The translations under genes were made by a program, and so were the position numbers. This document shows, one piece after another, positions 8,668 to 60,256 of a DNA stretch of 64,000 nucleotides. This DNA comes from a bacterium CG_4_9_14_3_um_filter_65_15. Lineage in GTDB: Bacteria; Krumholzibacteriota; Krumholzibacteriia; LZORAL124-64-63. The DNA is taken from the NCBI GenBank assembly GCA_002790835.1, contig PFVX01000021.1, positions 1 through 64,000 of the forward strand. Direction: 5' to 3'. The notes below the pieces were generated by a model. It saw only the letters and a list, made by a program, of their open reading frames with translations, made no database searches and was not told the origin of the DNA. Every line of letters begins with the position of its first letter. The stretch's first letter is position 1.

Positions 8668-9756
8668 CTATTTGGCAACTTCCCGCACCGCCTGGATCAC
8701 CAGATCCACGTCTTCATTCGTCAGGTCCCCGTGCATGGGAAGGCTCATAATCCGGCCCGCGGCAGGACAGGCCACCGGGAACTGTTCCGCCGAGTATCCC
8801 AGGTGGGCATAAGCCGGGGTCACCGGCAAGGCCACGGGATAATGAATACCGCAGGCGATATCCTTCTCCGTCAGGTGGGCCATGACATCTTCCCGGTTGT
8901 TCACCTGGATGACATAGAGATGCCAGACGTGCTTGTTGCCCTCGGCGGTCAGGGGCACCACACAGACGTCTTTCAGCCCGGCATTGTACCGTTCGGCCAC
9001 CGCGGTGCGCCGCTGCGTCCACGCGTCCAGATGGCGCAGTTTGACCGACAGCACGGCGCCCTGGATCCCGTCCATACGGCTGTTCGTGCCCTCGAAATCG
9101 TGCTGGTACTTGATGGCGCTGCCGTGGTCGCTCCACTTGCGGATTCCGGCGGCCAGTTCGGCGTCATCGGTGCAGACGGCGCCGGCATCGCCATAGGCAC
9201 CCAGGTTCTTGCCGGGATAGAAGCTGAAGCAGGCCGCGTTCCCGAAGGTTCCCACCTTCCGCCCCTTATAGGTCGCCCCGTGGGACTGGGCACAGTCCTC
9301 GATGACCAGAAGGTCGTTGGCCTTGGCGATCGCCATGATCGGATCCATGTCGGCCGGCTGACCATACAGGTGAACCGGCGCGATGGCCCGGGTGCGGTCG
9401 GTGATGGCCGCCTCGATCTTCGCGGGGTCGATGTTGTAGGTCACCGGATCGCAGTCCACGAACACGGGAGTGGCACCGGTCAGGCCGATGCCCTCGGCGG
9501 TGGCGATGAAGGTGTTGGCGGCGGTGATGACCTCGTCCCCCGAGCCCAACCCCAGGGATTTCATGGCCAGAGTCAAAGCATCCGTACCGTTGCCCAGGCC
9601 CACGCAGTGCTCGGTGCCGATGTACTCGGCGAAGTCGGCCTCGAAGCTGCGGGAGTTGACGAAGGCACAGCTGTCCAGCACATCCTGGATGGCCGTGTTC
9701 ACCTCGTCCTTGATCGTCGCATACTGGGCCTTGAGATCCACGAAGTTGACTTTCAT
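8668..9756 (-). CDS. DegT/DnrJ/EryC1/StrS-family sugar aminotransferase
   Basis: A 362-residue PLP enzyme of the DegT fold that aminates keto-sugars bound to nucleotides. It starts [19 protein letters not shown], and has [10 protein letters not shown] (phosphate binding, about 57-66), [11 protein letters not shown] (cofactor Asp about 154) and the PLP lysine at about residue 183 in [15 protein letters not shown]. The C-terminal HLYVIQ and [15 protein letters not shown] segments are also typical. It is transcribed from its own promoter upstream of 9756 and probably supplies an amino-sugar donor for the adjacent polysaccharide operon. Whether it makes a 3- or 4-amino sugar cannot be told. Confidence 0.92.
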
Positions 9757-9963
9757 TTCCCGGCTCCTCGGCGTAGGGGCTTCGTGCTCGGCAGGGTTCG
9801 GGACCCGGCCTCAATATCGTTCCTGAATTGTCATCGTCAACGTTAAGCGCGGGTTAACGGTAATTTTAACCCGTCGACGATTCCCTTATGGTTCGTCGTC
9901 GAACCGGCAATCTGCTATCATGGCCGCTGTCGCACGCAGAAAACCCGACCCGAGGCGAATTTC
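9757..9963. promoter_or_regulatory. Divergent control region with two palindromes
   Basis: This 207-base region lies between the aminotransferase (minus) and the sulfatase-like gene (plus). On the minus strand TTGACG (9840-9835), 18 bases, then TATTGA (9816-9811) is a plausible promoter. Two perfect palindromes lie between the genes: CGGGTTAA/TTAACCCG at 9850-9857 and 9866-9873, and GGTTCG/CGAACC at 9890-9895 and 9900-9905. Either could bind a dimeric regulator. The binding protein is not identified. Confidence 0.45.
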
Positions 9964-11331
9964 GTGAAGAACATCCTGCTCATCGTCATCGATACCCTGC
10001 GCCCCGACCATCTGGGGTGCTATGGCTACGGGCGGCCCACCTCGCCGAACCTTGACCGTCTCGCGGCGGGAGGAACCCGCCTGGACGCCCTGTGGTCGGT
10101 TTCCAATTTCACGGCGCCGGCCTTCACCTCCCTGTTCACCGGCTTGCACCCGCACCACCACGGTGTATTCGATTTCACTTCGCAGGCCGCCTCCTCACCG
10201 CTGGCCGGAGTCATCGAAGGCAACCAGATGGAAACCGCCGGCGTGGTGACCTTCCGGTTCTTCCAGAACCTCCTGCGCAACATCTGGGGTCCCATCGAGG
10301 CCGTGACCGACACGCGCGGGTTCGATTTCAGCAAAAATCTCCCCCTCGACGTCACGGCTTCGGCCCTGGAATGGCTCGGCGCACGGCAACAAGGCGAAAG
10401 TCCGTTCTGCCTCTTCCTCCATTACGACGGCCCCCACACCCCGTTCCGCATGCCCGACGAGCATGCCGACGTTTTCGACTCCCAGGCCGCACGCGGCGCC
10501 GACCCCGCCGTCACCGACCTGCTGTTTCCGCGCGCCGAGCGCCTGGATCCCGGTCGGCGCAAAACGACCATGTTCAGGTTCATGAAGGACGTCAACTGGG
10601 GGCGCCGCAAACTCGACCCGGCGACCCTGCAGTGGATCATCGACAAGTATGACGCGGCGGTCCGGTACAACGACCTGGCCGTGGGCAATCTGCTGGCCGG
10701 GTTGGACGATCTGGGCCTGTCCGACGACACCGTGGTGGCCGTCCTGTCCGATCACGGGGAAGAGTTCCTGGAGCATGGTGGATTCGCCCACGGCGGCATT
10801 CACCTGTACGAGGAGGTCGTCCGCACCGTCGGCATCATCCGTGACCCCGGAAAACCGGCAGGCGGGACCGCCATCACCCGACCGACCAGCCAGGTCCAAA
10901 TGCTTGCGGCCCTCCTGGAAATGGCCGGAGCGGCAGGGGCGCCGGCCACGGATCTGGGCAATCTGATGGCTGGCTCCCGGCAAGAACCCGGCCCCGTCTT
11001 CTGCCACGGCAAATCGAAGATCGCCGTGCGCCGGGGAGACCACAAACTCGTCGTTCCGAGGCCCAACCCGTCCCTGGATCGCATCACCCGGCTGAAGATG
11101 TGGATCAACATGGCCCGGCAGCGGAAGCTCGGCTCCGAGATCTTCGACCTGGCCCGGGATCCCCGGGAGACGAGAAACCTGATCAACGACAAGGAATTGA
11201 GGCGAGGTCTCCAGGCGATTCTGGATGAGCATCTTGCCGCGCCCGTTCCCGGCCCTCTCGGCAACCACGACCTTTCGGACGCTGAACGCCGGCGCATCGA
11301 GAAGGAAATGCGGGATCTGGGTTACATGTGA
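9964..11331 (+). CDS. Sulfatase / alkaline-phosphatase-superfamily enzyme with threonine at the nucleophile position
   Basis: A 455-residue alkaline-phosphatase-fold enzyme. The metal-binding start is VIDTLRPDHLGCYGYGRPTS (first Asp pair), and VLSDHGEEFLEHGGFAHG carries the second metal set. At the site where sulfatases have Cys/Ser-x-Pro-x-Arg, this protein reads TAPAFTSLFTG: threonine replaces the formylglycine residue and phenylalanine replaces arginine. A thiol- or serine-derived formylglycine is therefore not possible, and Thr would act as in phosphoethanolamine or phosphoglycerol transferases. The start is GTG at 9964 with GAGG upstream. No signal peptide is visible. The setting suggests a polysaccharide or lipid head-group modification. 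Confidence 0.82.
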   Translation: MKNILLIVIDTLRPDHLGCYGYGRPTSPNLDRLAAGGTRLDALWSVSNFTAPAFTSLFTGLHPHHHGVFDFTSQAASSPLAGVIEGNQMETAGVVTFRFFQNLLRNIWGPIEAVTDTRGFDFSKNLPLDVTASALEWLGARQQGESPFCLFLHYDGPHTPFRMPDEHADVFDSQAARGADPAVTDLLFPRAERLDPGRRKTTMFRFMKDVNWGRRKLDPATLQWIIDKYDAAVRYNDLAVGNLLAGLDDLGLSDDTVVAVLSDHGEEFLEHGGFAHGGIHLYEEVVRTVGIIRDPGKPAGGTAITRPTSQVQMLAALLEMAGAAGAPATDLGNLMAGSRQEPGPVFCHGKSKIAVRRGDHKLVVPRPNPSLDRITRLKMWINMARQRKLGSEIFDLARDPRETRNLINDKELRRGLQAILDEHLAAPVPGPLGNHDLSDAERRRIEKEMRDLGYM

Positions 11332-19568: not shown

Positions 19569-19669
19569 GGTTGCCGGTGGGTCCGGGTGTCTTCCGTTTG
19601 AAGCTTAGGTCGGGCCTGCGGCCCTCCAATGCGCTTCCGCACGGAAGACACCCGGACCCACCGGCAACC
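19569..19669. repeat. Long hairpin at the 3' end of top6A (element copy C)
   Basis: Perfect 29-base inverted arms at 19569-19597 and 19641-19669 enclose a 43-base loop. Beyond one bulge the arms continue into GCCCTG, which is the last codons and stop of top6A on the left. The loop refolds: GAAGC/GCTTC outside, then GGGCC-TGC-GGCCC. Read on the minus strand the apex is GGGCC-GCA-GGCCC-GA, similar to the apex of the hairpins at 54341 and 59161 but with different flanks. There is no T-run beside it, so a simple rho-independent terminator is not obvious. It lies directly after a stop codon, like the other two copies. Confidence 0.85.
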
Positions 19670-54257: not shown

Positions 54258-54340
54258 GGGCGCGGCTCCCGGTCGGGTGGAAATCCTACCTACCGGTTCC
54301 AATTCGGCATTTTCGCATTGATCCTTGAGGGATACCCGTG

Positions 54341-54437
54341 TGCCGCAAGGGTGATGCGTAGGCCCTGATCGAAATAATCCGCAGCCCGCAGGGCGAGGAC
54401 ATTTTTCGATCAGGGCCTACGCATCACCCTTGCGGCA
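54341..54437. repeat. Long hairpin at the 3' end of a methyltransferase gene (element copy A)
   Basis: Perfect 34-base inverted arms at 54341-54374 and 54404-54437 enclose a 29-base loop. The right arm is the 3' end of the methyltransferase gene, including its last codons and stop; the left arm is an inverted copy of it. The loop contains GCCC-GCA-GGGC (54384-54394) flanked by TAATCCGCA and GAGGACAT. A second hairpin at 59161 has the same loop flanks with GGCC-GCA-GGCC, the two changes compensating each other. No T-run is beside it. Confidence 0.9.
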
Positions 54438-55232
54438 TACCCAGTATCGCTCTCGATGGTCAATACCGAATCGTTTCAAGTCGGAAGAGGAGATTTCCCT
54501 GCCCGCGATCACTTCGGTGACCTCCCACTGCTCGCGTTCGAGAAGGTTTCCGAAATCGGGAGCGAATTGCCAGGCATGGGCATGGGCGCGGTAGGGATCG
54601 ATGCGGATGCTTTTGCTGTGGGCCAGACCCGGCTCGAAAGGCACCTGGATCCACGCCAGACCGCCCGGCTTGAGGACCCGCTGAATCTCGTCGACGCAGA
54701 TATCCAGTTCGGGAATATGTTCCAGGACATGGCTGCAGAAAATCCAGTCGACCGAGCCGTCAGCCAGGGAGGCTCCACGCAGGTCCGTCACGAAATCGGG
54801 TTGGAAACGCCGGTCGGCGGCGGCGAAATCGGTCCGATAACAGCGGCTCAGACCCTCGTGCTCCAGCAGGAAGCGCATGGCCGAGGAGAGGGAGAAACCG
54901 AGCATGGTTTCGGGCAAACGACTCGGCTGCGCCTTGAGCTCCTTGCGGACTCCCAGCACGAGCTGGCGGTGACGGTCGAAGGAGCCGCACCCCGGGCAGA
55001 TGCAATCACGGAGGACTTCGTCGGCGGAAAGAAAAGCCCGGAATCGCAGGCCGCGCCAGCCACACACCGAGCATTCCCGCGCCTCACCCAGTCCCGTGCG
55101 GGCAGCTGCGCCCAAAACCGCATTCTCGCCGGCCGCCAGCACGACTCGGGTCGCCTGCACCGGATGCCTCCACCAGCAGGCGGGCGAGCGGGTATCCAGC
55201 AGGGTGGTCCGAATGAATTCCAGGGCAGGCAA
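54417..55232 (-). CDS. SAM-dependent methyltransferase with N-terminal zinc ribbon
   Basis: A 271-residue protein. An N-terminal region contains paired CxxC motifs (ECSVCGWRG and CICPGCGSFDRHR) forming a zinc ribbon of the type seen in several RNA or sugar methyltransferases. The methyltransferase part has VTDLRGASLADGSVDWIFCS, HVLEHIPELDICVDEI and LKPGGLAWIQVPFEPG, the post-motif strands of class I enzymes of the Methyltransf_11 type. The start is TTG 55232, because TGA stands in frame nine bases before it; GGAG is at suitable spacing. The stop codon lies inside the right arm of a long hairpin. Substrate unknown. Confidence 0.8.
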   Translation of the reverse strand: MPALEFIRTTLLDTRSPACWWRHPVQATRVVLAAGENAVLGAAARTGLGEARECSVCGWRGLRFRAFLSADEVLRDCICPGCGSFDRHRQLVLGVRKELKAQPSRLPETMLGFSLSSAMRFLLEHEGLSRCYRTDFAAADRRFQPDFVTDLRGASLADGSVDWIFCSHVLEHIPELDICVDEIQRVLKPGGLAWIQVPFEPGLAHSKSIRIDPYRAHAHAWQFAPDFGNLLEREQWEVTEVIAGREISSSDLKRFGIDHRERYWVCRKGDA

Positions 55233-58125: not shown

Positions 58126-59124
58126 ATGGCGCCTTCGGCGATGAAGGGAATCGGCTGGCTCAAGGAACGCAGCGACCTGCGGGACCTCTGGATCGACATC
58201 CAGGTTTCCCCGGACACGGCAAAAGGCACGACGGCCAAGACCAGGCCCCTGACGCTGAAAGGGCCGGACGGCCCACCGCCCGCAGGCAGGTTCGGAAAGG
58301 TCGCCGCCTCGGTCGGCGGCCTGTCCTTCCCCTATCCCCCACCGCAGCAGCATTTCAGCAACGTGAAGTGGTGTCCCCCCATCGAGGACCAGCTCACGCT
58401 GGGATCATGCACCGCCCATGCCGGGGTGGGATTGCTCGAATACTACGAGAACCGGACCCACGGCAAGCACATCGACGGTTCGCGGCTCTTCCTCTACAAG
58501 GTGACCCGCAATCTGCTCAACTGGACCGGTGACACGGGGGCCTACTGCCGCACCACCATGGGAGCCATCGCGCTGCTTGGCGTCGCCATCGAGGAGTACT
58601 GGCCCTACACGGACCGGTCCCCCGATTTCGACCAGGAACCGCCCAGCTTCGTCTACGCCCTGGCCCGGAACTACCAGGGCCTCACCTACCACCGCCTGGA
58701 CGGCGTCAAGGCGACCCTGCCCCTCGACGAACGCATCAAGTTCATGATCTCCATCGGCTGGCCGCTCATGTTCGGGTTCACCTGCTACGAATCCCTGCGG
58801 GCGGAGACCGTTGCCCTCACGGGTGAAATCCCGTTCCCTTCCGCGTCCGAAAAGGTCATCGGCGGCCATGCGGTGATCGCCGTCGGCTACGACGACACCA
58901 AGAAGATCCGCAACACCCGCCTCGGCGGCAGGGAAACCACCGGCGCGTTCCTGATCCGCAATTCGTGGGGCACGCAGTGGGGCTGCGTCCCGCCGGACGC
59001 CCCCGAAGACACGACCCGCGGCTACGGCTGGCTGCCCTACGAGTACCTGGACAGCGGTCTGGCCAACGACTGGTGGACCCTGACCATGGCCGAATGGAAC
59101 GACGCCGGGGTGTTCGGCATCTAG
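58126..59124 (+). CDS. Papain-like (C1) cysteine peptidase, apparently cytoplasmic
   Basis: A 332-residue C1-family peptidase. The catalytic cysteine is in IEDQLTLGSCTAHAGVGLLEYY, where Gln supplies the oxyanion hole; the histidine is in VIGGHAVIAVGYDD and the asparagine in FLIRNSWGTQWG. No signal peptide is visible: it starts MAPSAMKGIGWLKERSDLRD, and the first 70 residues form a short Pro/Lys-rich extension that may be an inhibitory propeptide. GAAGGAAACAAC precedes the ATG. It is convergent with the 2-oxoacid oxidoreductase genes and ends near a long hairpin. Confidence 0.92.
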   Translation: MAPSAMKGIGWLKERSDLRDLWIDIQVSPDTAKGTTAKTRPLTLKGPDGPPPAGRFGKVAASVGGLSFPYPPPQQHFSNVKWCPPIEDQLTLGSCTAHAGVGLLEYYENRTHGKHIDGSRLFLYKVTRNLLNWTGDTGAYCRTTMGAIALLGVAIEEYWPYTDRSPDFDQEPPSFVYALARNYQGLTYHRLDGVKATLPLDERIKFMISIGWPLMFGFTCYESLRAETVALTGEIPFPSASEKVIGGHAVIAVGYDDTKKIRNTRLGGRETTGAFLIRNSWGTQWGCVPPDAPEDTTRGYGWLPYEYLDSGLANDWWTLTMAEWNDAGVFGI

Positions 59125-59160
59125 CGCGTCCGCACCCAACCTTCGAGCGGCCCCTTCCCC

Positions 59161-59242
59161 CACCCGCCCGAAAACAACGAGTCCCGGTAATCCGCAGGCC
59201 GCAGGCCGAGGACATCCGGGACTCGTTGTTTTCGGGCGGGTG
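59161..59242. repeat. Long hairpin at the 3' end of korB (element copy B)
   Basis: Perfect 27-base inverted arms at 59161-59187 and 59216-59242 enclose a 28-base loop. With a few mismatches the arms extend to about 59143 and 59257, reaching the korB stop codon. The loop reads TAATCCGCAG then GCC-GCA-GG then CCGAGGACAT (59188-59215) and contains GGCC-GCA-GGCC at 59197-59207. Apart from two compensating bases, it is identical to the loop of the hairpin at 54375-54403. It lies between the convergent peptidase and korB genes. Confidence 0.9.
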
Positions 59243-59254
59243 AGGGAAAGGCCG

Positions 59255-60256
59255 CTACTTGACCTCCCAAACATCCTTGGTATAAAGCAGATCCTTCAGG
59301 CTGCCCTCGCCCTTGGTGCCGGTCACGGCGCCCACCTGGTCCCAGACCTGCTGGTCCAGGGTCGGCCGGGACACGCTCCGCAGCACACCCATCGGCCGCG
59401 GCATGTTCGGGTCGTTGTCCAGCTGGGACATGACGAAGGCCGGGCCCGGGGATTCGTGGGTCGGATCCCAGACCGAAGCATCCTCGGCCGAACAGATCTC
59501 GATCTTGCAACCGTCGGTCTTCAGACCCTTGTCCTGGTCCTTGCCGAAGATCATCTTCTCGCCCGCCACCAGGTTGACGGTCTCCTCGTCGCGGACAGCT
59601 TTCTCAGTCCAGGACTTGAAGGCGCCGTCGTTGAAGATCACGCAGTTCTGCCAGACCTCAACGAAAGCGGCTCCCTTGTGCTCGGCGGCCGCGCGCAGCA
59701 CGGTCTTCATGTGCTTGGGGTTCACGTCCATGGTGCGGGCCACGAAGGTCGCTCCCGCTCCCAGAGCCAGCTGGATGGGGTTGAACGGCGCATCCAGCGA
59801 ACCGTAGGGCGAAGTCTTGGTCCGTTGCCCCATGGGCGTGGTCGGGGAGTACTGCCCCTTGGTCAGACCGTAGATCTCGTTGTTGAACAGGATGATCTTC
59901 ATGTCCACGTTGCGGCGCAGGGAGTGGATCATGTGGTTGCCGCCGATGGACAGGCCGTCGCCGTCACCGGTGATGACCCACACCGAAAGGTCGGGGTTGG
60001 CCACCTTCACACCGGTGGCGATGGCGTTGGCCCGACCGTGGATACTGTGCATCCCATAGGTCTCCATGTAGTAGGGGAAACGACTGGAACAGCCGATGCC
60101 CGACACGATCACGAAGTTCTCCTGGGGCACGCCCATGTCGGCCATAGTGGCCTGGACGCCGCTGAGGATGGAGTAGTCGCCGCACCCGGGGCACCACCGC
60201 ACCTCCTGGTCGGACTTGAAGTCCTTGGCTTTCAGTTGCTGCAGCTCACTCATCAC
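59255..60256 (-). CDS. korB: 2-oxoacid:ferredoxin oxidoreductase, beta subunit (KorB)
   Basis: A 333-residue thiamine-diphosphate-binding subunit. RWCPGCGDYSILSGVQATMA opens with the cluster-region cysteines, SGIGCSSRFPYYMETYGMHS is the family loop, and VITGDGDGLSIGGNHMIHSLRRN with IILFNNEIYGLTKGQYSPTT is the TPP/magnesium motif (GDG-x25-NN-like). It transfers electrons from oxidative decarboxylation of 2-oxoglutarate or pyruvate to ferredoxin, or runs in reverse to fix CO2. It overlaps korA by four bases (ATGA). Confidence 0.93.
   Translation of the reverse strand: MMSELQQLKAKDFKSDQEVRWCPGCGDYSILSGVQATMADMGVPQENFVIVSGIGCSSRFPYYMETYGMHSIHGRANAIATGVKVANPDLSVWVITGDGDGLSIGGNHMIHSLRRNVDMKIILFNNEIYGLTKGQYSPTTPMGQRTKTSPYGSLDAPFNPIQLALGAGATFVARTMDVNPKHMKTVLRAAAEHKGAAFVEVWQNCVIFNDGAFKSWTEKAVRDEETVNLVAGEKMIFGKDQDKGLKTDGCKIEICSAEDASVWDPTHESPGPAFVMSQLDNDPNMPRPMGVLRSVSRPTLDQQVWDQVGAVTGTKGEGSLKDLLYTKDVWEVK

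What the first reader, a model, noticed from the sequence alone, without database searches (positions are those of the whole stretch)
59143..59257. Second core-sharing hairpin, starting at the korB stop codon
Seen: 27-base perfect arms extend with a few mismatches to the korB stop, so the arm is again tied to a gene end; the imperfect outer part suggests an older event than the copy at 54341. The core is the same orientation relative to the adjacent gene as in that copy. The hairpin lies between convergent genes, so it could act as a terminator, RNase III site or barrier, but no T-run is present.
Basis: partly seen in the sequence, partly recalled or inferred. Interest (0 to 1): 0.7.

Follow-up and report, generated by a model that had tools for sequence, protein, structure and literature searches.

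The report
Capped terminator hairpin after korB
The hairpin after korB is one of about twenty gene-end hairpins in this genome that share a small fixed tip but have long, almost perfectly paired arms unique to each site; it sits where relatives keep an ordinary transcription terminator, and its two arms appear to be rewritten together during evolution.

Summary
Confirmed and extended. The hairpin is real: 27 perfect base pairs, 36 with two mismatches, around a 28-nt core (folding z about -12). The core, TAATCC-GCA-G(CC GNA GG)C-GA-GGACAT, marks a set of gene-end hairpins in one family of Candidatus Krumholzibacteriia: about 20 in this genome, hits in 32 of 38 family members, none in 42 other genomes of the class. 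The tip is conserved; the arms differ at every site, yet 98% of stem cells pair.

Core orientation is tied to a gene whose stop lies 15-59 nt away. In 28 other relatives the slot after korB holds an ordinary terminator-like hairpin; the capped arms carry a GC stem plus a U-rich tract on both strands. I read it as a bidirectional terminator with a conserved cap.

Between orthologues the arms change as matched pairs (531 paired, 49 one-sided) at about the fourfold-site rate or faster, which fits template switching better than stepwise compensation. Wobbles, tip loops and DNA folding energies favour the strand antisense to the gene, hinting at a DNA hairpin. No Rfam family matches; six of seven genomes checked lack a Y1/RAYT gene. 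Termination, the cap's role and template switching are inferred, not tested.

The parts
59152..59187 (+). left (5' on + strand) arm; inner 27 bases pair perfectly, outer pairing continues weakly to about 59143
59188..59215 (+). 28-nt conserved core (cap): TAATCCGCAGGCCGCAGGCCGAGGACAT
59216..59251 (+). right arm; holds the GC stem and the U-rich tract TCGTTGTTTTCG; weak pairing continues to the korB stop at 59255-59257
59255..60256 (-). korB-like gene (Pfam TPP_enzyme_C) whose stop anchors the hairpin
58126..59124 (+). convergent papain-family protease gene on the other side
54338..54440 (+). second capped hairpin; core 54375-54402; right arm overlaps the end of the 54417-55232 (-) methyltransferase gene

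Best explanation
It is a bidirectional intrinsic transcription terminator at the end of korB and of the facing protease gene, and it belongs to a lineage-specific set of 'capped' terminators. A conserved hairpin-tip motif sits at the apex. A GC-rich stem of about 8 bp followed by a U-rich tract does the terminating, and the pairing then runs on for a further 10-30 bp. The tip is also a stable DNA mini-hairpin on the strand antisense to the gene; when replication exposes it, the new strand can fold back at the tip and copy one arm from the other. This builds long arms from local sequence, keeps them nearly perfect, and now and then flips the core. Shown here: the set of copies, orientation, slot, pairing, co-changing arms and strand bias. 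Inferred: that it terminates transcription, that template switching is the cause of the co-changes, and that the cap promotes it.
For: Same slot after korB holds an ordinary terminator-like hairpin in 28 other relatives: 22 by the repeat finder, six by eye. GC-rich inner stem then T-rich 10-18 nt out, on both strands. Sites lie at gene ends with a fixed core orientation, stop 15-59 nt away. Arms pair in 98% of cells with double changes at all 21 outer pairs. 531 paired against 49 one-sided changes between orthologues at fourfold divergence below 0.5, e.g. 21 of 28 pairs and no one-sided change at fourfold divergence 0.19 for L100/L104. Cores flipped relative to the same gene in sister species (L027/L034; L013/L106), as expected from spacer inversion (PMC8604942). 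Template switching is known to create, extend and maintain hairpins (PMC8794818). G.T wobbles on the antisense strand 30 to 7, GNA tip loops, and DNA tip more stable on that strand in 94 of 107.
Against: No expression data. The U-rich tract is modest, and a standard terminator scan finds nothing at this site (it allows loops of 3-8 only). A terminator does not need 35-bp arms or a conserved tip. The antisense-strand bias is unexpected if gene-sense RNA is what matters, and by RNA parameters the gene-sense tip is the more stable in 86 of 107. A korB terminator in G031 has long arms without the cap, so the cap is not required for arm growth.
Confidence: 0.5

Rival explanations
1. A recognition site in the mRNA 3' end: the tip is bound by a protein (or RNA) and the long helix stabilises or processes the transcript (for example by RNase III). 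Arms stay paired only through selection on the RNA.
For: Tip with invariant TCC/GGA and GCA/GA internal loop and covarying inner stem; fixed orientation to the gene; gene-sense tip slightly more stable as RNA.
Against: G.U wobbles are favoured on the strand opposite to the mRNA (30 to 7 in the inner 24 pairs; 26 to 0 at the tip's closing pair). Paired changes keep pace with fourfold sites and have few intermediates, which is not expected from stepwise compensation.
Confidence: 0.2
2. A REP-like mobile palindrome: core plus about 8 bp of inner stem is copied around the genome by an unknown single-strand DNA enzyme, often into terminators, and local arms are added afterwards.
For: Core with inner stem is shared between unrelated genes within a genome (e.g. 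TGGCGGGC-TATCC in several g10 copies); tip variants are genus-specific; patchy presence at the gatD-like gene; antisense-strand DNA fold.
Against: No Y1 transposase in six of seven genomes searched, a short match with one internal stop in the seventh; many sites are held at orthologous genes; only about 20 copies per genome; no insertion caught between close relatives.
Confidence: 0.2
3. An assembly artefact: fold-back chimeras made by the assembler.
For: Genomes are fragmented; one G002 copy (L093, with L029) lies at contig ends and looks like a fold-back chimera.
Against: 108 sites across about 30 separate assemblies with the same core, orientation and distance, most of them inside contigs; the window copy lies inside a 74.9-kb contig; fold-back would not conserve a 28-nt apex.
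Confidence: 0.03

Closest known systems
Intrinsic (Rho-independent) terminators, bidirectional type
   Same: GC-rich stem, A-rich 5' and U-rich 3' flank, just after stop codons; same slot as ordinary terminators at korB in relatives
   Different: Conserved 20-30 nt structured apex, arms of 24-50 bp, arms rewritten together
REP / BIME palindromes
   Same: Dispersed, extragenic, imperfect palindrome with conserved mismatches, at gene ends
   Different: Only the tip (and some inner stem) is shared while the arms are local; about 20 copies per genome; no RAYT gene found in most genomes checked; not in pairs of fixed spacing
DNA uptake sequences that form terminators (Neisseria, Pasteurellaceae)
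   Same: A conserved genomic word built into gene-end hairpins
   Different: The word is in the apex, not in the stem; tens of copies, not hundreds to thousands; no uptake evidence
Integron attC sites
   Same: Hairpin after a gene; strand antisense to the gene appears to be the folded one; unpaired bases; variable terminal structure
   Different: Arms have no conserved sequence, so no conserved outer recombination boxes; genes such as korB sit as orthologues, no cassette arrays seen
Inverted repeats homogenised by template switching (quasi-palindrome correction)
   Same: Perfect arms, multi-base paired changes, extended stems, inverted spacers
   Different: Here a conserved apex is reused at about 20 unrelated gene ends per genome

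Membership tests
Intrinsic terminator | GC-rich hairpin just downstream of a gene | tested here: met
Intrinsic terminator | U-rich tract after the stem | tested here: inconclusive
   T 32-55% at most positions 10-18 nt from the core, but within the paired arm; the standard scan finds none here
Intrinsic terminator | transcripts end there | not testable with these tools
   no RNA data
REP/RAYT element | Y1 (RAYT) transposase in the genome | tested here: not met
   PF01797 absent in six of seven genomes including the window's own
REP/RAYT element | conserved palindromic sequence repeated across the genome | tested here: inconclusive
   met for the tip and partly the inner stem, not for the arms
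Integron attC | conserved outer recombination boxes at the base of the hairpin | tested here: not met
   outer arm columns carry no conserved sequence
Known RNA family (Rfam 15) | match at the gathering score | tested here: not met
   none in 20 loci; in the window only chance-type microRNA-hairpin matches below gathering score
Template-switch-maintained inverted repeat | paired arm changes with few one-sided intermediates, and spacer inversion | tested here: met
   flipped cores L027/L034 and L013/L106; individual events not resolved on a tree

The most novel reading that the evidence does not exclude
The conserved tip is a DNA hairpin that promotes template switching: wherever it becomes the apex of a terminator it turns that terminator into a long hairpin that keeps rewriting both of its own arms, at times into the ends of neighbouring coding sequences. 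It would be a self-maintaining non-coding element that spreads without a dedicated transposase.
Probability: 0.25. Interest if true: 0.8.

Novelty: new variant of a known kind. Interest (0 to 1): 0.6.

Why it matters
It gives about a hundred natural replicates of one question: how do long perfect hairpins arise and stay perfect? A fixed apex, arms unique to each site, and known orthologues make template switching against stepwise compensation directly testable. It also marks a gene-end element, not matched in Rfam, that is confined to one bacterial family.

Tried and rejected
Known RNA family (Rfam: none). RAYT/REP mobility (no Y1 transposase in 6 of 7 genomes). Phage origin: 65 pattern matches in viral contigs, none with arms (best arm score 3), so chance matches. 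Arms copied from elsewhere: the 21-nt inner arm occurs only in this hairpin, allowing 3 mismatches. Such hairpins at all gene ends: no, perfect stems at ends without the core reach 15 bp at most in 464 kb. A larger element bounded by half-cores: half-motif matches in 464 kb show no second family of ends. A kink-turn reading of the internal loop was dropped because the bulged strand lacks the GA step (own knowledge). No paper linking Krumholzibacteria with inverted repeats was found in the held library.

Full report
What is there. The reported hairpin is present: arms 59152-59187 and 59216-59251 (36 nt, 94% complementary), 28 nt between them, with weaker pairing out to about 59143 and the korB stop. 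It folds at -94.9 / -99.9 kcal/mol on the two strands, z about -12. The core TAATCCGCAGSCCGCAGGSCGAGGACAT occurs twice in the window.

Family. The core pattern has ten places in the window's genome (3.39 Mb, 94 contigs): eight have long arms, one is a lone core, one is a chance match in coding sequence. A covariance model of 31 sites finds 20 in this genome and hits in 32 of 38 genomes of the family (lower bounds), and none in the 42 other genomes of the class. A looser motif, TCCGCAG-(3 to about 45 nt, usually a hairpin)-YGAGGA, covers variants. Public records that match the core are two contigs of a Candidatus Krumholzibacteriia MAG and one contig of an unclassified MAG. In 464 kb of this genome, not chosen for the motif, seven of eight long inverted repeats carry it; the eighth has another repeated core.

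Anatomy. On 31 aligned sites 98.0% of 868 stem cells pair, all 21 outer pairs show double changes, and the covariation score is 0.964 against 0.194 in shuffles and at most 0.184 when partners are slid. The structure was chosen from these sequences, which favours the true register by construction, but the gap is very large. The tip keeps TCC/GGA and the internal loop GCA/GA, while its inner stem covaries (GGCC/GGCC, GCCC/GGGC, GGGC/GCCC).

Position. Of 108 sites, with AATCC on the left the gene on the right runs towards the core and stops 15-59 nt away in about 82, by a home-made gene caller; the left neighbour runs either way at variable distance. The caller missed some real cases, such as the 54417-55232 methyltransferase. 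A few sites are flipped relative to the same gene in a sister species (L027/L034; L013/L106). Convergent genes sometimes each have a copy, in opposite orientation and 140-280 bp apart.

What it replaces. At korB, each of 28 other relatives has an ordinary terminator-like hairpin after the stop (22 by the repeat finder, six by eye), mostly with 9-13 bp stems and 20-60 nt after the stop, while G000 and G002 have the capped hairpin there. The G002 contig end may be chimeric, so the G000 copy is the firm one. At a gatD-like gene (Asparaginase and GatD_N domains) the capped hairpin is seen only in G000, G002, G026 and G011. From the core outward the arms are GC-rich for about 8 nt and then T-rich at 10-18 nt on both strands. 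No other terminator-like site was found between 58900 and 59500. Hence the terminator reading, which is inferred.

How the arms evolve. Between orthologues with fourfold divergence below 0.5 there were 531 paired changes, 49 one-sided and 54 other; the comparisons overlap, so these are not independent events. Pairs without any one-sided change include L126/L128 (7 paired, fourfold 0.23), L015/L033 (7, 0.27) and L100/L104 (21 of 28, 0.19; the core differs too, while the outermost base of the stem is kept). Two-step compensation should leave more intermediates and be slower than neutral change. Template switching rewrites arms in one event, extends stems and inverts spacers (PMC8794818, PMC8604942). 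In G031 the korB terminator, without a core, has an imperfect 36-bp arm while its sisters have 11-12 bp, so arm growth also happens without the cap.

Which strand. In the inner 24 pairs wobbles are G.T on the AATCC strand 30 times and A.C 7 times (p 0.0002), with no bias further out (27 to 29). The tip's closing pair is G.T 26 times and A.C never, and the tip loops are mostly GNA. By DNA parameters that strand's tip is the more stable in 94 of 107; by RNA parameters the other strand's is, in 86 of 107. The AATCC strand is antisense to the anchored gene, so the simplest joint reading is a DNA hairpin on that strand; an antisense transcript is the alternative. The korB hairpin's own two outer mismatches run the other way.

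Limits. The cap's own function is the weakest point of the explanation.

Noticed in passing
window 19569-19669: A third long hairpin (29-bp perfect arms) directly after a gene end, with a different repeated core (GAAGCTTAGGTCGGGCCTGCGGCCCTCCAATGCGCTTC); three copies in this genome, one of them without arms, none in 37 other genomes searched. Its antisense strand also has a GCA tip loop.
   Followed up: partly
L046 about 9050-10020 (G000:C12:161550-162520): A core without arms after a signal-peptidase-like gene, beside a methylglyoxal-synthase-like gene that lies between it and an intact capped hairpin; in G002 a single capped hairpin lies between the two outer genes.
   Followed up: partly
L193 (G031, korB end): A korB terminator without the core whose arms have grown to 36 bp (imperfect) while three sister species have 11-12 bp.
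   Followed up: partly
L005, L034, L084, L137: Arms that extend into coding sequence, so that the end of a gene is mirrored on the other side and convergent reading frames can share C-terminal residues.
   Followed up: no
L093 and L029 (G002:C15 end, G002:C57 start): Contigs that end at a capped hairpin and seem to fold back on themselves; such hairpins may break metagenome assemblies.
   Followed up: no
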